Shown one piece after another: positions 6,703 to 23,964 of a stretch of 64,000 nt of DNA. Where the stretch lies: positions 124,001-188,000 of the forward strand of contig JAUTDP010000013.1 of the NCBI GenBank assembly GCA_033439795.1. Direction: 5' to 3'. Every line of letters starts with the position of its first letter. Position 1 is the stretch's first letter. Source of the stretch: Sordaria brevicollis. Taxonomy: Eukaryota > Ascomycota > Sordariomycetes > Sordariales > Sordariaceae. The position numbers and the translations under genes were made by a program. Below the pieces are notes generated by a model. That model made no database searches and was not told the origin of the DNA. It saw only the letters and a program-made list of their open reading frames with translations.

Positions 6703-9152
6703 TGCATGCTTCTGGTTTAAGAGCGTTTGAAGCAGAAGAGAGAGCCACTTGCACCGAAGGCCCAGATGCGGGTTATTGCTCAGCGAACCCCTTGCTGATA
6801 CCTTGCCCACTACTTCCCGAGAGCTATTTCTTGGACGGCAGGCCGTGGTGCCACACCACTTGTCCCGAAGAACAACCAATGCTGTTTTCTTGGAACGGGG
6901 GCTTGCCAACCGCAGCCCTTGGACGAGGCTCGAAGGACTGAACAAAAGAAGAAAAAGAAAGGAAGACTTCTCGGCGGGCACCTCACGGGCGTCACGACTT
7001 TCGCACCCTCTTTAACAAAGCAAGGGGAGGGAGGGCATAGAGTGATGAACGCAGACAAGCATTTTTGAGTGCATTTGTCTTCTCCCCGTGAGACCCATCA
7101 AATGATAATGCTGCGTCTGATGGCTGATGACTGATGAGATGATCTTTTTTTTAGAAAGTTAAAGACAAACGGTAGAGGGAGAGGAAAGAAAGGAACGGGA
7201 ACGGAAACGGAAACGCGCGCAAGACAAGAGAGGGTTTGTAGATATGAACAGAATTCACAATAGATACCCCAAATTTTGGACGAGTTATACACGAGTGTCC
7301 GGTTCTTGTCTACTCTCAAGTTCCTCATAGATTGGGAACCAACGTCGACACTCTGTGACTAACCTTGCCTCAACAAACCTTCACATTGCTCTCCTACAGA
7401 GAACGTACAATGTAGCATAATTTCCTAAAGCCGCTACTGCCCGACAGCTCCTACAAAGGTTCCACCCAATACCATCACCGCTAACTCGTGGCAGTACATT
7501 GGCCTCCTTAATCCGTTACACAACACAAGCCAAGGCCCATCTCGCAGAACCATTTCAACCCGACTTCAATATCAGACCAGGAACACAGCTGCAATACTGC
7601 GGGCACTCGTTCCATACGCTACATCCCCTATCCCCTTCCCGAACCCTGAACCGAGAACAGAAAGGGAACAAGGCACATCAAACAAACCACTTTCATCAGC
7701 CGCAATTACCTTCACAAATTGGGTTAGACATGCATACGTTCACAAGCTACAGCGTGTTTACAACAGCGTACGTCCTGCAGAAGGATGAACGGTATTAGGT
7801 AAGTTGTATCACCGAGCGAGCGGCGGAAATTGCGGGATGAAGCACAAAGGACGGACGGGACGGGACGATGGGGAATTTTGGTTCACCGTGGGGGTTCAAG
7901 TTGTTGTGTGGGTTTTGGTCTCGACTTTTGGAAACTCGAGGAATACCATACTACACGGAGATGATGCTGGATCAGTGGTAGGTATGACATCTTATGGTAG
8001 CGGTGTACAACAGAACCATAAGGGTTCTTAGGCGGCATCTTCCAGATTTGGAATATTGTTTCCTTTCCTTGATGGTATCTAGTCATGGTTAAGGAATGAC
8101 CAAGGTATTTTGCCTTGACGAAATTGCGTCGAGAGAGTTGTTCCGCCTCCCCCTCTCGAAGGTTTGGTTCTTTTGTCTACTATACCCTTTGCTAACGTGT
8201 TCCAGGTTCAGGTAAGTCTACTTGAGGATTTCCCGGTCGAGTCGCTCTTGCCAATTCATCTTATGATGCTTCGGACGTTCCTTCTTCTTACATCTAGAAA
8301 AGGCGCCCTCACTACCTCTAGGTACCCCCGTCTACCTTCAGTCGCCACTCCCGTCTTTTGTGCGCCTACCTCTAAATGTACACATGCATGCCTTGGCGCG
8401 GAAGGCGCCGTGTTTTTCTTTTCCTCCTTCGATCCTGCCCTTGTCTGCGCATACCTGATCGACACTAGAGGTACCTCTAGGTAGGAACGGTCTCGGGGAC
8501 GGGAAGATCAGTTACCCGTACATACCCGACGACGGGAACGACGGAGCTTACTCCGATCGATACAAACACCATCTACACAAATACATATCGCCGAGCGGTC
8601 ATGTCTCCATCCTCTCAAAAGGTGGGGATGTACCTAGTCGTCGTCGTATATGCCGATCAACATGCAAGCTCCCACCAGACCACAACGTAACGGGGTTCAT
8701 GAGCACGGTGCCCCCCTCCTGAGTAATACTATTACTAGATGTAAACTGATCTCCCCGCGCCAGGTTGGGCTTCAAGAAAGTCAAGGGTGAAACTGGTGAC
8801 AGTGACACTGCTGCGGGAGGATTCAAACAACGAATCCGTTTTGGTCGAAGAGTTACGTCGACACAAGTTTCTCATCAGGGGTCAGGATGGCGTCAAGATT
8901 GGGGGTTCCGACAAGAGAGAGGGGGGAAGTACAGCCAAAGAAGATGTATGTCCAAAAGCTCTGCGGCTCGTTCCATAGCCTACGAGGGTGGAGCAAGGCT
9001 TAGGTTGGGAGCAAGACACTACCTCGTCACTTCAAACGTGGACAAGAGGAGAAAGAGGTAGCGTCACCTAGGATTTGGATCAACACGGAGGGAAGTCAGT
9101 TCCTCTTCTTGACTTGATACTTGCGAGTCCTCTCACCGAAGGGTAAAAGAGG
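6703..9152. other. intergenic region, no gene seen
   Basis: About 2.4 kb between LIS1 and the APP-like gene. It holds the LIS1 3' UTR and only short frames without family features or codon structure. Palindromic TACCT..AGGTA sites occur near 8313-8324 and 8470-8483. Confidence 0.55.
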
Positions 9153-9160
9153 TATAAGTA
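9153..9160 (+). promoter_or_regulatory. candidate TATA box (TATAAGTA) of APP-like gene
   Basis: TATAAGTA lies 165-172 bp upstream of the ATG at 9325. The leader between them is C/A-rich, ending in runs of CCCA and CCA. Position and composition fit a strongly expressed fungal gene, but no transcription start is known. Confidence 0.4.
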
Positions 9161-9324
9161 TCTCGCCATCCACCCCCATCCCAGCCAGCTTTTGGTTCTT
9201 CTTCTTCAGCAACACATCAAACATTCACATCTACACAGACAAGACACAAGCCTCACACAAGACACATATCTCAATTCCTCACACAACTCACCCACCCACC
9301 CACCCCCAACCACCACCACCCAAA

Positions 9325-9951
9325 ATGGCCCCCTCAGTCGACCCCAACTCGGCCGTCTTCTACCAACAAAAGGACTTCTCCGGCCCGGGCGACTCCTACC
9401 CCATCAGCCCGGAGTCTGTCTCCGTGCCCGGCTCCCTCAACGACAAATACCTCTCCGTCGCCGTCGGCGCCTCCGCCAAGGTGATCGCCTGGCAGCACTA
9501 CAACGAAATGGGCCACTACCGCGAATGGACGGACTCGCAGCCCGACATCTCGGACATTGAGGGTCTCTCGCGGTTCCGCGTCGTCGACGACGACACGCGC
9601 GCCATCTCGTTCATCTTCAAGGATAGCACCGGCGGGGAGAGTAAGCGGTATTCCCTGAAGGTGGACGCGAGGGATGTGGGCGCTGTGACGTTGTATAGCA
9701 ATGATGGGGATGAGTATGCCCTTGTGGGCATCCTGCCGGCGGGCGGGCCACCCGTTACGACGGCGGTTTATGTGAGGGATGAGAAGAGCGGGGGGTATAT
9801 CGCTGTTGGGTCGGTGTATTTCCAGTGGAATGAAAGCACGGGTGAGGTGGATGTGGTGGAGAATGATAATTGGCCGAAGCAGCTTGATGCTAAGAGGACG
9901 GGGAAGAGTGCGTTTGAGGTTACGTTGGTTGATAATAAGCCTAGTGAGTAG
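9325..9951 (+). CDS. app: abundant perithecial protein (APP)-like, beta/gamma-crystallin-type fold
   Basis: Intronless, 208 residues, ATG in good context (CAAAATGGCC). No signal peptide or membrane segment. The N-terminal half resembles beta/gamma-crystallin-like domains: an aromatic F-Y-Q-Q-K-D-F-S-G-P-G-D-S-Y start (residues about 11-24), then a SLNDKYLSVAVG stretch and a Trp-rich turn (WQHYNEMGHYREW). From memory, Neurospora/Sordaria APP is a very abundant fruiting-body protein described as a functional analogue of eye-lens crystallins; composition, length and location here suit that, but the assignment rests on recall. The frame extends upstream to 9121, but through a CCACC-rich leader with protein-like composition absent, so 9325 is the start. 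Probable role: dense cytosolic structural or storage protein in perithecia. Confidence 0.7.
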   Translation: MAPSVDPNSAVFYQQKDFSGPGDSYPISPESVSVPGSLNDKYLSVAVGASAKVIAWQHYNEMGHYREWTDSQPDISDIEGLSRFRVVDDDTRAISFIFKDSTGGESKRYSLKVDARDVGAVTLYSNDGDEYALVGILPAGGPPVTTAVYVRDEKSGGYIAVGSVYFQWNESTGEVDVVENDNWPKQLDAKRTGKSAFEVTLVDNKPSE

Positions 9952-12055: not shown

Positions 12056-12067
12056 GAGAATAACTTG

Positions 12068-12141
12068 TGATCCGACCCAGGCTCGATCTGGGGACCTTCA
12101 GTGTGTTAGACTGACGTGATAACCAACTACACCATCGGACC
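12068..12141 (-). tRNA. tRNA-Val (anticodon AAC)
   Basis: 74 nt, no intron. Acceptor GGTCCGA pairs with TCGGATC (one G-U), discriminator A. The D arm contains GTAGTTGGTTATC. Anticodon arm TCAGT-CTAACAC-ACTGA gives AAC. The T arm shows the B-box-like GATCGAGCC loop. All stems close, so the gene looks functional. Confidence 0.95.
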
Positions 12142-15044: not shown

Positions 15045-18000
15045 ATGAAAGCCCCTTCGTCACAAAGGGTCTCCGGCATTCCGCGCATAGACACGACTTC
15101 GACCTGGACACAGCGTGAGGAGGAAGCTTCCGAAAATAGGCTACTATCGGTCATTGCGCAGATCCTCGACATCCCGAGAGAAAACATCCAGCTCCATGAA
15201 TCCTTCAGAGACTTGGGCGGTGACGACAGGTCCGCCGTGGCCTTGAGAGCCGAGTGCTTGGAGGTTGGCATTGACATCAAGGTTTCCGATATTCTTCGCT
15301 GCCCGACCCTCGCCGAACTCCAGACCTGTATCATACCCAAGTACGAGCACCCCGACGCCCGCCGCAAAATGTCCGACAATAATATCGAACCTCTTCAAAT
15401 ACAAAGGCCCGGGAGGCTGTCCGTTACCGCCGATGTAAAGGCGACTGCGACGATGAAACACTCGCGCAACTCGAGCCAGGCCAGCTCCGGCTCGCAAACT
15501 ACAGCCATGACAGAAATCGAAAAGGCATTAGGAATACAAAAGGAAATATCTAGGATAGCAACTGTGCGACCAAAGGCGGGCATTCTGGAAGGGAAACTCG
15601 TTGCCCTCTTCACTCTCTCCACCACTCAGTCATCCCGAGCCAGTTCATCCGATGTTAGCCTAATATCCCAGTCGAACTCCATCTTCGCCGGCACCCAAGT
15701 CACCTTTCTTCGCGAGGTCGCCAAAACCCTTCTTCCACCGGCAAGCCTACCTGATATATGGATCGTCTTGGAAAGCATGCCTCTCACCGAAGCTGGCCAT
15801 GTAGATACTCGACGATTGCGAACTTGGGTTCAGAATATGAATCAGCAGCTTTACTATCAGGTGTCCAATCTCCAGTCCCAGGTACCGTTGGAGGAGCCCA
15901 AAACGACCATGGAACGCTCCTTGCAGAGGCTGGTAAGCAAGGTGCTGGGTCTTTCTCAGGCTCAGATTGGTGTCAACCTTTCATTTTGCCAGCTAGGAGG
16001 CGACGAGACGACTGCCATGGAACTTGTAGCCCGGTGCAAAAACGAGACCATCTACGTCAACCCTTTGGAGGTGCTTGGATCCAATACGCTGTCGGAATTG
16101 GCCTCCATTGCCGAGTCTAGGAGTATCCAGGAAAACCAATGGGAGGAGGAAACTCGCGATTACTTCGACCTATCCCCCATGCAGCATTTGTATTTCGAGT
16201 CTTCCATGGGTGGTGACCTGAATCGCAGAGCTGCCGGCGATGGGACTTACCGCTTCAACCTAAGCCTCTTTCTGCGCTTCAAAAAGGATGTTTGCTATGA
16301 GGATGTCGCGGCAGCGCTAGAAGCTGTGGTTGCCCATCATCCAATGCTTCGATCGCGCTACAGTCGAGGGCCCGAAGGTTGGATGCAGCTTATACTGCCT
16401 GATGTTTCATCATCGTACAGCCTGCGCCGCCACTCGATATGCTCTGATCAGGAACTTGATACCGTTATCGGTCGAACCCAGCTCTCCATCGACATCGAGA
16501 AAGGGCCGGTCTTCGCCGCCGACTACTTTACCACCCACGACGGACAACAGTTGATATATCTTGCTGCGCACCATCTGGCTGTTGATCTCCCCTCATGGCG
16601 CATCATCATTCACGATCTTGACGAACTGCTGGACTCTGGAAGCTTCATGTCCCAAAGATCGATGCCCTTTCACAAATGGGTTGAGCTACAAAAACACGAT
16701 GTTCGAGGCAAAGATCCAAAGGAGTTCGTGCCCTTCAAGGTCCAACCGGGAGACTATACCTTTTGGGGCCTGCGAGAAATCCCAAACGCATACGGCGATA
16801 CCCAGGACATCAGTTTCGCTCTCAGCTCGGAGTTGACGACAATCTTGCAAAGTTCTTGCAACCAAGTCTTCAAGACTGATACCGTCGACATCTACCTCGC
16901 AGCGCTTATGCTTTCATTTGCACAAACGTTTCCCGAGCGGTCTGTGCCTGTGGTTTGGAATCAAGAGCACGGTAGGGACATGTGGAGGTCTGATATTGAC
17001 ATATCCGAGACAGTAGGGTGGTTTACAGCTTTGTGCCCAATAAGCCAAAAGGTAGAAGGGTCGGACGACTTCATCGAGGTCCTCCGACATCTCAAAGACA
17101 CGCGCCGGTCCATACCGGCTCATGGATCCAAGTATTTCGCGTCACGTTTCTACAACAACGCCGGGCCAGACACCGTGCGCCCCGACTGGCCGTTCGAAGT
17201 CATGTTCACCTACGCCGGGTCGCTGCAACAACTAGAGCGCACAAACGGCGTGATGGAACAGTTACCCCTGACGAGCAGATCTTTTGACTCCCCGACATCG
17301 GATATTGGGTCGAAGGTGGGCCGCGTAGCGTTGTTCGAGATCAGCGCCATGCTTGACAAAGGTATCGCCAAGGTGTCGTTTACGTATAGCAAGTACTGCA
17401 AAGACCAAACTCGCATCGCGCAATGGGCCCATAACTACGAGCACCTGCTTCTCGAGGCAATTGGCAGACTGAGGTACCACCCTCATGAGCTGACGCTGGC
17501 TGATGTTCCACATCTGGATGTCACATATGAAGGATTGACGAGATTCAACAAACAGCGGGTAGCGGGTCTGAAACTGGCAAGCGTGCAAGACGTCGAAACC
17601 ATCTACCCGGTGACTGCCGTACACCAGGCCATTTTGATCAGTCAAGCTCAGCGTCCAGATTCGTGCTATTTGCATGCGATATACGAGTTTGCATCACCAC
17701 ATGGCGACTCGATCGATATTGCCAGACTATGCAATGCGTGGCAGCATGTATGCATTCGACATCCAGCCCTAAGGACTATCTTTACCGAGAGTGTCAGCGA
17801 GACTGGGTTGTGGGATATGGTGATCCTTCGTCGGGCTTCGCCGGATATGCTGTTCATTGATACAGCCCCCGCCGAGGACCCTGTGTACGAGCTCGACAAT
17901 CTGCCACATCTCAGAACGATAGACAACAAACCGCTTCATCGCTTGACGGTGTGCAGAGCTCCGACTAGGACGTTCATCAAGCTGGATATTAGCACCGCGC

Positions 18001-21000
18001 TTTGCGATGTAAGTCTCTACTCCCGGGATTCTGCCGTGCACCTGTGCTTACGAATTACAGTCTGTCAGCATACACCTCATCTTGCACGATCTACGAAGAG
18101 CCTACGTCACCGAAAAGGCCATTCCCGAACCTGCCCACTTTGGCTATCCTCATTACATGCAGTTTCTGAGCGGGATACGTCGCGGATCCAGCGTTGACTT
18201 TTGGCGTGAAAGGCTTTCCGACGTTGCAACATGCATGTTCCCCAGACTTACCGTATCTCCTGACGAGCAGCGCTTCGTCAACTCATTTCTTAACCTGGAG
18301 GTCACGTCCTACGAACTGTCCGGGTTTACAAGATCTCACGCGACTACCGTCGATGCGATTGTCCGTTTGGCATGGAGTCTTGTGCTGCGCTGTTTCACCG
18401 GGTCAAATGCTGTGTGCTTCGGTTACCAAACAAGCGGCCGCGACACCTCGGTTCCTGAGCTACAAAATGCCGTGGGCTCATTTGCCAACATGGTGGCCTG
18501 CAATCACGAACTTACGTCGTACACACCCCTCAAGATGGCGCTGGAGGCCATTGAGGATCAACTCACGGCTAGCTTGCCGCATCAACACTTTACCATGGCC
18601 GAGTTGGAACATGCTATGGGAATGAAGGGCGGCGAGCACCTCTTCAACTCGTGCCTCACATTTACCGAGGAGCCCGCAGGACTGAACAGCAAGTTCACGA
18701 CCAGGACCAGCTTTGAGCTCAAGTCACTTTCGCTCAAGCAGACGTCGGATGTGGACGTACTCGTCAACACGCGGTTTGCGGGAGGGAAGCTGGTGGTCGA
18801 TATCGGACAACGGGTCATGTCCGAAGAGCAAGCCCTCAACGTGGCCAACACGTTTGGAAAAGCGATTCGCACCATTCTTTCCGCGCCACATAGTTCCATT
18901 GGAACGGTTGACCTATTCAGCGACCGCGATTATGCCCAGCTGTTGGCTTGGGGCGCTGATTCGCCGTCTGGTGATAGCACACGGGTTGAAAGCCTTGTTC
19001 ACGAACTAGTAAGCAAGCAGGCCAGCGCCCAGCCAAACTCTCAAGCTGTTTGCGCATGGGATGGAACTTTTACATACCAGAAGCTGGATGAGGAGGCAAC
19101 AGTTCTGGCACATCATCTGGTGGAGATTGGCGTTGGCCCTCATTCGGTTGTGCCTGTGGTTATGGAGAAGAGTCGGCTTGCTATTGTGGCGATTCTCGCT
19201 GTTCTCAAAGCCGGCGGTGCGTTTGTCCCTATTGATGCCCTAGAACTGGGCCTGATCCAGCCCATCTTTGAAAGGCTTAATTTCTCGAGGGTGGCGGTCG
19301 CCTCGGAGCGCGCTGCTGTAGTCCTTGGAAACCTTTTCGACGACGTTGTCACTTTGAACAACAACCTGATGGAGAGCCTTCCCCGAGATCGAAGATCGCT
19401 TACTTCAATGGCCACGTCTTCGGACCCAGCCTGTATTCTGTTTTCTCGTGTGTCCTCAGGGGAGGCACGTGGAGTTTCCTTCAGCCATACCGCTCTATCT
19501 ACAGCACTCTTGGGCCAGGGCCCCGCTGCAAAGATTGGACCATTGAGTCGTGTCATGCAACTCTCGTCTTTCAACGTTGACATCTGCGTTTCGGAGATCC
19601 TCACCACACTTGCTTATGGAGGATGTGTGTGTGTGCCGTCTGCGAACGAGCGGCTCAAGGACTTTGCAGGCGCTGTGAACCGGATGCAGGTCAACTGGAC
19701 TTACATGACACCACACCTCTCCCGTAAGGTCGACCCATCAAAGGTGCCGACTTTGAAGGCGGTGTGCTTTCGGACTCAGAACTTGGACGAGGACACATAT
19801 AGTGCATGGCATGGTAAAGTCAATGTGATTCTGGCTTATGGGCCGCATGATGTCTGTCCGCTGGGTATCTCCTTTCTCGAGGTCGTTGGGGCCAGTCAAC
19901 TTCGTAGTGTCGGTCGCCCGTTCTGCGGTAGCTTCATGGTCGTCAATCCCGACGACCGTAAGAATTTGGTTCCTGTTGGCGCCGTCGGAGAGCTGGTGGT
20001 AGAAGGGCCAACCTTGGGCTGCCATTACCCCAACCGGGAGTCTACCTTGGGCCCCATGTCGCCACTTGGACCGTCTGCGGGCAACACGTCGCGGTACTAT
20101 AAGACTGGACACCGTGTTCGATATACGGACGGCGGGTTGATGGAGTTTATCTCCCATAAACACGACGAAATTGTTAGCAAGGGGAGGCCAGTGGATACAG
20201 CGCAGATAGAACAATATCTTCGACGTTGCCTTGGACAAGGGGTTGATGTGCTGGTAGACAAACTGCCTTTTCGAACGGCGGATGACACGCCAGTGCTGGC
20301 GGCCTTCATCGAGTTTGGGGATAGTATCCTCGACGGCGAAGACGATCTGGCCTCGCTGGGCACAACAGCTAAGGAGCAACTGTTCATTGCCAGGCAGCTT
20401 GTCGAAATCGGATTGCGAAGCAATGCCGCGCCGGCGGGCATCCCGTCAATCTTCATTCCGGTCAAGCATCTTCCGATCACACCTTCATTAAAGGTCAACA
20501 AACGTCGTCTCCAAAAGATGATCAGCGGGTTGTCTAAAGAGCAACTCATCGCACTGTGCGCTGCCTCAACGTCCAACGACGGGAGGCTCACGTCCATCAA
20601 ACCTCTTCCGTTAACAGACAACGAAGAGCGCATGAGAGCCATCTGGGCAAAGGTTCTGGGTATAGAGGAAGCACGTATCCGAGCTTGCGACGGCTTCTTT
20701 GGCGTTGGAGGTGACCACGTGCTTGCTGCTCAACTGGTTACCGCCTGTCGGCATGAGGGTATATCGATCTCGATTGCCGACGTCCTTCAGAATGTCACCC
20801 TCGCTGAGCTGTGCAGGATGATGTCCTCCGTTGAGCCGCTGCAGTCTGACAGTGCAGTTGTATTGCCGGTCATAAACGCTTCGCCCACTGCAACCGACCA
20901 CAATGCAGTTAAGCAAGTCCTCGTGAAGAAAGTCATTGCGCCCAAAGTTGGTGTCGATGCCCACGGCATCAAAGACGCTGCCGAAGCAACCTCGACACAA

Positions 21001-23964
21001 ATTCGCCATATGGAGACCGGGATGCTCCGCGGTCGTGCAAATATCAACTACTTTACCTTCATGTTCACCGGCGCCGTCGACGCTAAGAAGCTGGAAGATG
21101 CGTGTCTGACACTTGTCACCATCCATCCCATCCTCCGCACCGCTCTTGTTCCACACAATCGAAAGGTGTACCAAGCCGTGATTAAGTCGGCTAATGTTGA
21201 GTTCAAGAGGCATACTTGCCCCGCCTGGAGGCTGAACACCGTCATGGAAAAGTCGATTCGGAAAGACCAAGCCTCACCGGTGGCGTTTTGCTCCCCGATG
21301 ACCAAGTTTATCTTTATCGACGGAGGGAAGCAGTCGATTCTCATTCTTCGACTGTCCAAGGCCCAATACGATGACCTGTCCATGGCGCTGTTTGTCAAGG
21401 ATCTCAAGAAGCTGTATGATGGAACGCAGAATCCACCTCGTCGTCCAACATACTGCGAGTTTGTCCGGTCTGTGCAGCTGGCTAACTCGCAAGGGGCCGA
21501 GGAGTACTGGAAGAAACTGCTTGAAGGAAGCACGGTCACCCAGGTAGTCGAACATTCGTTGCCGTACCGAGTATCGGCAAATACCAAGACTCTGCGCCAT
21601 GTGATGCCTCTTGGTTCCTTGTCCAGTCTCGGAATTTCGTACGAGACTATCCTGAAGAGTGCATGGGCGATGGTTCTTGCCAGTCTCTCAGCCTCTTCCG
21701 ATGTCGTCTTTGGCGAGCTTGTTGACGGTCGCCATGTCACACTCTCTGGCAATCAGTCGGTGATGGGAGTCATGGGGCCGACAATCAACCAGATTCCCGT
21801 CCGGGTGCAGTTCCCAGACACGCCTCTCACACCGTTGGGCCTGCTCCAGTATGTCCAGACGCAGCGGATTTCCAGCATACCCTTCGAGAACCTGGGAACG
21901 CTGAATATCGTGGAGAAATGCACGCCGTGGCCGTACTGGACGCGCTTTAGCACGCTGATCCAGCACCAATACGAGGATACGGCCATCGTCCCTGCGGAGC
22001 CCAAGTCGTTCCATCTCGGTGCTGCCTCGTGCAAGTTCACCGTTGTTGAATCCAGGGCGCAGGATGTTCCTGATCTGTTCATCAGGTCAATCACACGCGA
22101 GAACAATCGCGTCGAGTTGTCCGTTACTTTCTGCGTCGATCGGGTCCCTGAAACTTTTGCCGATGATGCGCTGCGGATGGTCTGCGCCACTATCAACCTT
22201 CTTACCAGCGTTAACATCATGCAACCACTTATTCCATCGGGCTACCAATACAAGAACATGGAGAAGAGGATACCGCTCCCGCTTAGAGATTTGCTGGACG
22301 CCTGTACAGCTCATAGCAATGCCGGTCGGTCAGATGCTGTTAAGGCGCTGACCAAGGATCAAGAAAAGGGCATTCAGGCCGTCATCTCCAAAGCGTGGAC
22401 TTCGGTTATTAACCCTAAGGCGCTGGGTGTCCCGGAGGCGCAAGTGCACATTGCTGCCTTCTTTGATCTATGGGGCAGTCTCATCCCCGCCGCCCAGCTA
22501 ACCACGCAGCTGAACCGTGAACTTCCCAAGGCCGGCATCCCAGGTGTTGATGCCACCATCACTGTTACCATGGAGGAGATTGTTGAAAACCCTACGATGG
22601 TCAAACAGTTCGAGCTGATTGCAGTCAAGGTGAAGAACAAATCATCCAACGGCGGCAGTGCCAGCCCTTTACCATCTCCTTTACCAAAGGGTGGCAAGGA
22701 TAAAGACAAAGAAAAGGGTAAAGACAAAGACCTTCATCTAGAAAACAACAACAAGCAGTCTGCAATGCCAGCAGACAGCACCCGCCTTGCCCCAATTCAA
22801 GCCGCCGTCCGTAGGAAACCGAGCATCAACCTCGCCGTAGCCAGCGTCAAGGGGACTTTCCGCCGATTCGCCTCCACCGTCGGCCGCTCAGGTTCGGAGT
22901 CCTCATCGTCCGCCAAAACCTCGTCATCATCTTCCGGTTCTGGGTCTGGAAACCAACAATCCACCACCATGGCCATTGGCATTGCCTCAGCGATGGTCGC
23001 CGAGCTTGTCTCGCCTTTTTCGCCAAATGTCGTGAGCGCGAATATTAATGCCCGTCTTGACGTTCCTGGTCGTCAACAGAATCAAGAGCAGCAGTCCCAA
23101 CAAAAACCTACCACTCAGCAACCGTTACGTACGGTTGATATACACCCCGGCCAACCCGCTTTTGATTTTAACGTCATCGACAGTCCCATCGGTCCGGTAG
23201 AGAAGGATGCCACCGAAGAGCTCTTTGAACCAGGGCTGCAGTTACTACCAGGAGCAGGCGTCGAACTTCCTTCATCGTCAACTGGACCATCAGGTCTGGC
23301 AGGAGGGAGAAGAGGAACAGAACACACCCTCGGCTCCTCAACCTCGGGAAGAACGAGCTTTACGGACGATGGCGGCGGTGGTAGTGCGCGAAGTAGTCGC
23401 TACAGCACCGAGGATGTGCGAGCCGGATACGGTGATGCTGACCTGCCTATTGGGTCGGCAAGTTCTACTTCCTTAGGTTACGGGTCGTTGAGAACCAGCA
23501 CTAGCGGGACCAATGGACACACCCACGGAGGAAATATCCCAGCTACAATCGACACAGCAGCAGCCAACGGCTCATGGCGGAGACGTGTCGCTGACCGAAC
23601 ACTCGCTAATGAAGCAGATGACTTGGTTTCTCCGTTGACGGCCGTTAGTCCTGGTCCGGGGAAGTATACCTCCTCTTCTAGTACTGGGAGGTTATTCTTT
23701 GGTAGTGCTGCCACTTCTGCTACCGGCACCGGGCTAGAGAATGGGAATGGGAATGGGAATGGGATGAAAAGTGGTGGAAATGGTGGGTTGATGGTTAAGG
23801 TGTCACCTGTTACTACGCCGAGTAGTCCAGCGGGAGGGGTGATGGCGGAGGCGATGAAGCAGGGACATGCAAATGGACAGGGACAGGCACATAGACGGAC
23901 GGTGAGCAGTGGGGGGTTGTCGTTGATGAAGAAGAAGATGGGGATGTCAAGCGTTGTTGAGTAA
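15045..23964 (+). CDS. NRPS-derived multidomain protein with all carrier sites lost (pseudo-NRPS)
   Basis: Exons 15045-18008 and 18061-23964, intron 52 bp (GTAAGT...TTACAG): 2,955 residues. Order: carrier T1 (about 30-100); isolated C-terminal adenylation subdomain (155-262); T2 (285-360); epimerization-type domain (372-830; HHLAVD at 509-514, TVGWFT at 656-661); C domain (850-1285); A domain (1298-1810); T3 (about 1830-1905); C domain (1966-2400); T4 (about 2425-2500); disordered tail to 2955. The carrier Ser of GGDS is Asp61, Glu321, His1874 and Leu2462. The C-domain His is Thr984 and Lys2088. In the A domain the A3 loop reads SRVSSGEARG, A5 AYGPHD, and A7 TGH in place of TGD; A10 Lys1799 remains. 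The frame has no internal stop. Normal peptide assembly looks impossible; a scaffold, binding or regulatory role is inference. Confidence 0.85.
23739..23764 (+). repeat. GGGAAT hexanucleotide run in NRPS-like tail
   Basis: About four GGGAAT units coding Gly-Asn repeats inside the low-complexity tail of the NRPS-like protein. Confidence 0.85.

What the first reader, a model, noticed from the sequence alone, without database searches (positions are those of the whole stretch)
15045..23964. A 2,955-residue NRPS-derived protein with every carrier serine replaced
Four carrier domains are recognisable, and in each the phosphopantetheine Ser is gone: Asp61 (LGGDD), Glu321 (LGGDE), His1874 (VGGDH) and Leu2462 (LWGSL). 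The replacements differ and are not simple RIP changes. Yet the gene is one clean frame with one canonical intron, a TATA element and no stops. That pattern suggests selection for a non-catalytic function: a pseudo-NRPS. A fungal NRPS scaffold with zero working carriers would be a new kind of protein role.
Basis: partly seen in the sequence, partly recalled or inferred. Interest (0 to 1): 0.88.

Follow-up and report, generated by a model that had tools for sequence, protein, structure and literature searches.

The report
Conserved dead peptide-assembly megaprotein of fungi
A huge fungal protein built like a peptide-making assembly line has lost key catalytic residues in its working parts, yet relatives in many fungi of one large class have kept it, so it probably does a different, non-enzymatic job.

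Summary
Window 15045-23964 (Sordaria brevicollis) encodes a 2,955-aa NRPS-derived protein with one 52-nt intron and Asp61, Glu321, His1874 and Leu2462 at the four carrier-Ser sites. It is not recent decay. I assigned 177 listed homologs to its family; in an A-domain tree 22 members form one clade apart from 46 other NRPS A domains. Carrier Ser occurs in 0/122 (T1), 16/123 (T2), 4/176 (T3) and 0/173 (T4) members. Catalytic His: terminal C-like domain 0/176, inner C domain 11/142 (all Colletotrichum). Epimerase Glu 0/147. A7 Asp 4/176, mostly His. In 15 species pairs within or near Sordariales the protein is as conserved as the genome's NPS6-like NRPS (mean difference +0.5 points); in 7 deeper pairs it is less so (-12.9). 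That NRPS keeps its carrier Ser, catalytic His and A7 Asp in 119-120 of 120 homologs. The modelled domains are predicted folded. The dead A domain's amino-acid pocket is unusually conserved while its ATP motifs drift. Best reading: a pseudo-NRPS kept for a non-catalytic role, possibly a ligand-binding scaffold. dN/dS, expression and activity were not tested.

The parts
15045..18008 (+). Exon 1 (aa 1-988)
18009..18060 (+). Intron, GTAAGT...TTACAG, 52 nt, phase 0
18061..23964 (+). Exon 2 (aa 989-2955 plus stop)
15126..15344 (+). T1 carrier-like domain; Ser site is Asp61 (15225-15227)
15522..15860 (+). Remnant of an A domain: C-terminal subdomain only
15897..16118 (+). T2 carrier-like domain; Ser site is Glu321 (16005-16007)
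16152..17510 (+). Epimerisation-like (E) domain; HHxxxD kept, catalytic Glu position is Gln640 (16962-16964)
17562..18966 (+). Condensation (C) domain interrupted by the intron; catalytic second His position is Thr984 (17994-17996)
18982..20556 (+). Adenylation (A) domain; A7 Asp position is His1672 (20110-20112); pocket residues Asp1495 (19579-19581), Cys1557 (19765-19767) and Arg1559 (19771-19773)
20608..20832 (+). T3 carrier-like domain; Ser site is His1874 (20716-20718)
20929..22266 (+). Terminal condensation-like (CT) domain; SHxxxD reads SKAQYD, Lys2088 (21358-21360)
22354..22632 (+). T4 carrier-like domain; Ser site is Leu2462 (22480-22482)
22633..23961 (+). Low-complexity, fast-changing C-terminal tail

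Best explanation
This is a pseudo-NRPS: a whole NRPS that lost most or all catalysis in, or before, the ancestor of the sampled Sordariomycetes and has been kept for a non-catalytic role. Shown: shared loss of catalytic residues, one clade in an A-domain tree, strong protein conservation in the closer orders, predicted intact folds. Inferred: it makes no peptide and acts as a multidomain scaffold or regulator. Most likely mechanism (inferred): the A domain, which keeps its amino-acid pocket but has lost ATP-binding motifs, binds an amino-acid-like ligand without activating it; the carrier-like and condensation-fold domains serve as docking surfaces; the variable tail is a place for regulation. 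I put about 0.8 on a selected, non-catalytic protein and about 0.3 on the ligand-binding detail.
For: Site counts over 178 members, gaps excluded: Ser T1 0/122, T2 16/123, T3 4/176, T4 0/173; CT catalytic His 0/176 (Lys 80, Arg 72); C catalytic second His 11/142; E catalytic Glu 0/147 (Gln 134); A7 Asp 4/176 (His 143). The structural Asp of the same condensation motifs is kept: E 148/148, C 143/143, CT 163/176, so fold positions stay while catalytic ones go. Controls: 120 NPS6-like proteins have T Ser 120/120 and 119/119, C HH 120/120, CT His 119/119, A7 Asp 120/120; six multimodular NRPSs nearest by profile score carry a GGDS/GGNS carrier motif in 23 of 24 T domains and their four matched E-domain Glu motifs in 3 of 3 E domains seen. 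A-domain tree, 22 family and 46 other A domains: family on one side of a branch, SH-aLRT 100. Matched identities for 22 species: +0.5 points on average for 15 pairs within or near Sordariales. To Copromyces and N. intermedia the domains are 84-97% identical, the A-remnant linker 83-85%, the tail 67-69%. AlphaFold mean pLDDT 82.1 (aa 1-827) and 83.5 (aa 1301-2495); best PDB matches are PCP-E didomains and LgrA, the A domain at TM 0.80 to 1amu. Nine pocket positions average 0.81 conservation against 0.58 for the A domain, reached by 0.2% of random sets; 26 ATP-motif positions average 0.46, as low in 0.6%.
Against: T2 Ser, in good LGGDS context, is in 16 members, so one carrier may be loadable there. 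The 11 Colletotrichum C domains read SHALCD, the same form (SHxxxD) as the C domains behind E in two multimodular relatives, so that domain may be competent; three of these 11 also have Ser at T3. E-like HH is kept in 136/148, and a Glu lies one residue after the lost Glu in 133/147, so a shifted Glu cannot be excluded. A10 Lys is kept in 112/174. Over all 22 pairs the mean difference to the control is -3.8 points, and -12.9 in the 7 deeper ones. The pocket test does not control for burial, and positions 330/331 rest on an ungapped reading where HMMER places a gap. The C domain (aa 828-1300) was not modelled. One T domain of a multimodular relative, the terminal T4-like one of P0185, also lacks the motif, so T4 may have been degenerate before the family. 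Inactivity is read from residues, not measured; no ligand, partner, expression or phenotype is known to me.
Confidence: 0.8

Rival explanations
1. Residual catalysis without its own carriers: the E-like domain, which keeps HHxxxD, acts on free or trans-delivered substrates, as other enzymes of the condensation fold do (recalled).
For: HH kept in 136/148 and Asp in 148/148 E-like domains; a Glu one residue after the lost catalytic one in 133/147. The domain is predicted well folded.
Against: The Glu aligned with EGHGR is Gln in 134/147 and Glu in 0/147. On the tree the second His is missing in 5 of 79 representatives, needing 5 changes.
Confidence: 0.1
2. Some lineages still run a minimal reaction through T2 (Xylariomycetidae) or through C and T3 (Colletotrichum), and the family is a slow, uneven decay of an enzyme.
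For: T2 Ser 16/123, T3 Ser 4/176, C second His 11/142; faster divergence than the control in 7 deeper pairs.
Against: CT His is 0/176, and no member has both E His and E Glu. The four members with A7 Asp have Glu instead of the A10 Lys. T2 Ser needs 6 changes on the tree, in 6 of 61 scored representatives.
Confidence: 0.06
3. A gene in recent decay, or a prediction artefact, in this species.
For: The tail is poorly conserved.
Against: Open frame, GC3 0.58-0.70 in the domains against 0.52 in the tail and GC 0.50 in the noncoding flank, no RIP signature, conserved homologs.
Confidence: 0.03

Closest known systems
Multimodular fungal NRPSs with E domains (P0182 Aspergillus avenaceus; unnamed metagenomic P0144)
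   Same: P0182 ends in A-T-E-C-A-T-CT and P0144 holds A-T-E-C-A-T, the order of which this protein is a reduced copy
   Different: Their T domains carry GGDS (7 of 7), their A domains lie outside the family branch, and their E domains carry the Glu motif in 3 of 3
NPS6/SidD-like NRPS of the same genome (G000 C26, P0235; type recalled from its A-T-C-dA-T-C order)
   Same: NRPS domains, homologs in many of the same species
   Different: Keeps carrier Ser, C HH, CT His and A7 Asp; A domain outside the family branch
TqaA terminal condensation domain
   Same: Sequence match to the CT region
   Different: Family CT lacks the second His in 176/176
GrsA and TycA PCP-E didomains
   Same: Top structural matches of the N-terminal model
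   Different: Carrier Ser and epimerase Glu absent here
Fusarium NRPS12 / ChNPS12 subfamily
   Same: Two records in the family are named 'Nonribosomal peptide synthetase 12' (P0120, P0174)
   Different: ChNPS12 is described as one A domain plus a ferric-reductase-like domain (passage of PMC2823734); Pfam found no such domain here. Whether Fusarium NRPS12 of the papers is this gene I could not verify

Membership tests
Functional NRPS | Modular A, T, C-type domains and folds | tested here: met
   (folds by prediction; C domain by sequence only)
Functional NRPS | Phosphopantetheine Ser in carrier domains | tested here: not met
   0 of 4 in this protein; family counts
Functional NRPS | Catalytic (second) His of the C and CT domains | tested here: not met
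   Thr984 and Lys2088 here; family C 11/142, CT 0/176
Functional NRPS | Epimerase HH plus Glu | tested here: not met
   HH kept, Glu position is Gln; both together in 0 of 178
Functional NRPS | A-domain ATP motifs A3, A5, A7, A8 | tested here: not met
   A7 His; A3, A5 and A8 degenerate; A10 Lys is kept here
Functional NRPS | Adenylation and carrier loading activity | not testable with these tools
   needs protein
Pseudoenzyme | Homologous to an enzyme family | tested here: met
Pseudoenzyme | Catalytic residues lost, fold kept | tested here: met
   (fold by prediction)
Pseudoenzyme | Kept by purifying selection | tested here: inconclusive
   Protein conservation matches an NRPS control in 15 closer pairs but not in 7 deeper ones; dN/dS not possible
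NPS6/SidD-like NRPS | A domain in the same clade | tested here: not met
ChNPS12 subfamily | Single A domain plus ferric-reductase-like domain | tested here: not met
   definition from passages

The most novel reading that the evidence does not exclude
A complete assembly-line synthetase has been exapted as a non-catalytic receptor-scaffold in Sordariomycetes: the dead A domain senses an amino-acid-like ligand through a near-invariant Asp-Cys-Arg-Pro-Leu pocket, and the unloadable carriers, acidic at T2 in 46 of 46 scored members of Sordariales and allies, mimic a charged, loaded state and dock partners.
Probability: 0.2. Interest if true: 0.92.

Novelty: new variant of a known kind. Interest (0 to 1): 0.8.

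Why it matters
Single dead domains inside NRPSs are known (for example the degenerate second A domain of NPS6, passage of PMC2823734), but my searches found no paper on a whole NRPS kept without catalysis (open-licence PubMed Central only; one search lists 12 of 951). If right, inventories that count these proteins as NRPSs overstate peptide-making capacity, and a very large protein shared by laboratory fungi such as Neurospora and Sordaria has an unknown, testable, non-biosynthetic role.

Tried and rejected
Rejected: RIP as cause of the Ser losses; recent decay; a one-residue shift making Ser2461 the T4 carrier Ser (that column is Ser in 123/173, Ala in 46); acidic carriers as a family-wide rule (T1 and T3 vary widely elsewhere); filing as ChNPS12 or NPS6 (membership table). 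On re-checking I dropped the first His of the C motif as evidence: it is 0/142 in the family, but C domains behind E in multimodular relatives also read SHxxxD, so only the second His counts. Alignment dependence: the whole-protein alignment shows 2 T1 and 3 T2 Ser rows among 112; the T1 rows (P0114, P0115) and two T2 rows (P0092, P0096) are low-complexity stretches without a recognisable carrier motif, the third is P0086, which one search counts.

Led nowhere: the Neurospora crassa gene number; function of Fusarium NRPS12/13; a biosynthetic cluster (Pfam on 10 neighbouring ORFs gave hits for 2, a WD40 and a crystallin/membrane-bind protein; the ORFs were not all scanned).

Limits and dropped rows: the tool shows only the best 120 of 777, 611 and 2337 hits. 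From, 9 multimodular proteins were left out by hand, leaving 111, 66 new proteins in P0121-P0192 were kept, 6 multimodular left out, and P0193-P0234 not taken. Many members are partial or unnamed, so members lacking T1 or T2 also count among the 159 of 178 without carrier Ser. The 22 species pairs were picked by eye from species named in both lists. 'Sordariales and allies' was picked by row number. Trees used 22 members and 79 of 147 full rows.

Full report
Observation. The frame 15045-23964 is one gene of two exons and 2,955 aa. From Pfam, PDB matches and family HMMs its order is T1 - A remnant - T2 - E - C - A - T3 - CT - T4 - tail. The four carrier sites read Asp, Glu, His and Leu. An AT-rich, RIP-like region begins about 2.3 kb downstream, but the gene itself has no RIP signature.

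More than carriers. In this protein the catalytic His of the C domain is Thr984 and that of CT is Lys2088, the epimerase Glu is Gln640, the A7 Asp is His1672, and A3, A5 and A8 are degenerate. The structural Asp of the condensation motifs and the A10 Lys remain.

Relatives. One search (exon 2, residues 1-1450) lists 120 of 777 hits, search 2 (profile of 14 members) 120 of 611. I assigned 177 listed proteins to the family by length, identity and score. The names shown belong, by recall, to Sordariales, Chaetosphaeriales, Coniochaetales, Magnaporthales, Diaporthales, Glomerellales, Microascales, Hypocreales, Xylariales and Amphisphaeriales, all Sordariomycetes; I looked up three lineages, the window's species among them, and unnamed or cut-off names are unplaced. 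Exactly the full domain order is found in 97 of 178; others are partial or lack a detectable T1 or T2. The host is Sordaria brevicollis: a protein named from that species is 100% identical to the C26 locus and lies on a contig of the same length, 3,362,729.

Shared loss (gaps excluded). Ser: T1 0/122, T2 16/123, T3 4/176, T4 0/173. CT His 0/176; C second His 11/142; E Glu 0/147; A7 Asp 4/176. At least one carrier Ser is seen in 19 of 178. Exceptions matter. Fifteen of the 16 T2-Ser members bear names of Xylariomycetidae (recalled) and the unnamed one (P0179) groups with them. T3 Ser is in three Colletotrichum and in Pseudomassariella. The 11 C-domain His members are all Colletotrichum. On a tree of 79 representatives CT His and E Glu are absent throughout, T2 Ser needs 6 changes, the C His 1. 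So loss at CT, T1, T4 and the epimerase Glu probably predates the sampled radiation; T2 was lost repeatedly or regained, and the Colletotrichum C His looks like a regain on this tree.

Controls. NPS6-like proteins keep T Ser (120/120, 119/119), C HH (120/120), CT His (119/119) and A7 Asp (120/120); the first CT motif residue is Ser in 116 and His in 3. In six multimodular relatives 23 of 24 T domains carry GGDS or GGNS and 3 of 3 E domains the EGHGR or ESHGR motif. Nine other multimodular proteins have Ser 9/9 at the T3 column.

One clade. In the A-domain tree the family is one side of a branch with SH-aLRT 100 and a stem of 0.91; its inner order resembles the taxonomy I recall. The age of the radiation is recalled as hundreds of millions of years.

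Selection. dN/dS could not be computed. For 22 species I compared identity to S. brevicollis of this protein's core and of the NPS6-like NRPS: mean difference +0.5 points for 15 pairs within or near Sordariales, -12.9 for 7 deeper pairs, -3.8 overall. Within the gene, domains are 84-97% and the tail 67-69% identical to Copromyces and N. intermedia.

Structure. Predicted folds are confident for aa 1-827 (pLDDT 82.1) and aa 1301-2495 (83.5), with low linkers; aa 828-1300 and the tail were not modelled. Foldseek ranks PCP-E didomains first for the former and LgrA for the latter, the A domain matching 1amu at TM 0.80. pTM is 0.60 and 0.50, so domain placement is not to be trusted.

Mechanism. The residues at the amino-acid code positions are D I S T C R A P L K. 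Asp 175/175, Cys 176/176, Arg 174/176, Pro 169/176 and Leu 173/176 are nearly fixed. Over 78 representatives nine pocket positions average 0.81 against 0.58 for the domain, reached by 0.2% of random sets; 26 ATP-motif positions average 0.46. Burial was not controlled. This is why I favour a ligand-binding, non-adenylating A domain within a scaffold, at modest confidence.

Literature. I saw passages, not whole papers, of PMC2823734, PMC6480918, PMC5675463, PMC6737921, PMC10455376, PMC9239088, PMC6563098 and PMC3694855; other papers only as listings. No passage that I saw describes this family as catalytically dead. Pseudo-NRPS wording gave 3 papers on other subjects by title and abstract start; pseudoenzyme with nonribosomal peptide synthetase and fungi gave none.

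Effect of the re-check.

Noticed in passing
window 26250-64000: About 37 kb of AT-rich sequence (GC mostly 0.17-0.29) with RIP-like dinucleotides starts about 2.3 kb after the gene; possibly centromeric or other heterochromatin.
   Followed up: partly
window 22861-22878: Tail motif RRFAST (RRLAST in several Sordariales rows) resembles a basophilic kinase site (consensus recalled).
   Followed up: no
window 9121-9951: ORF with a beta/gamma-crystallin and a membrane-binding Pfam domain.
   Followed up: no
window 16005-16007: The T2 Ser site is acidic in 46 of 46 scored members of Sordariales and allies; reason unknown.
   Followed up: partly
window 12067-12141: tRNA-Val (AAC) gene on the minus strand.
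   Followed up: no
family members P0162, P0068, P0120, P0174: Public names such as plasma membrane permease, atnA and Nonribosomal peptide synthetase 12 are attached to members and look unreliable.
   Followed up: no
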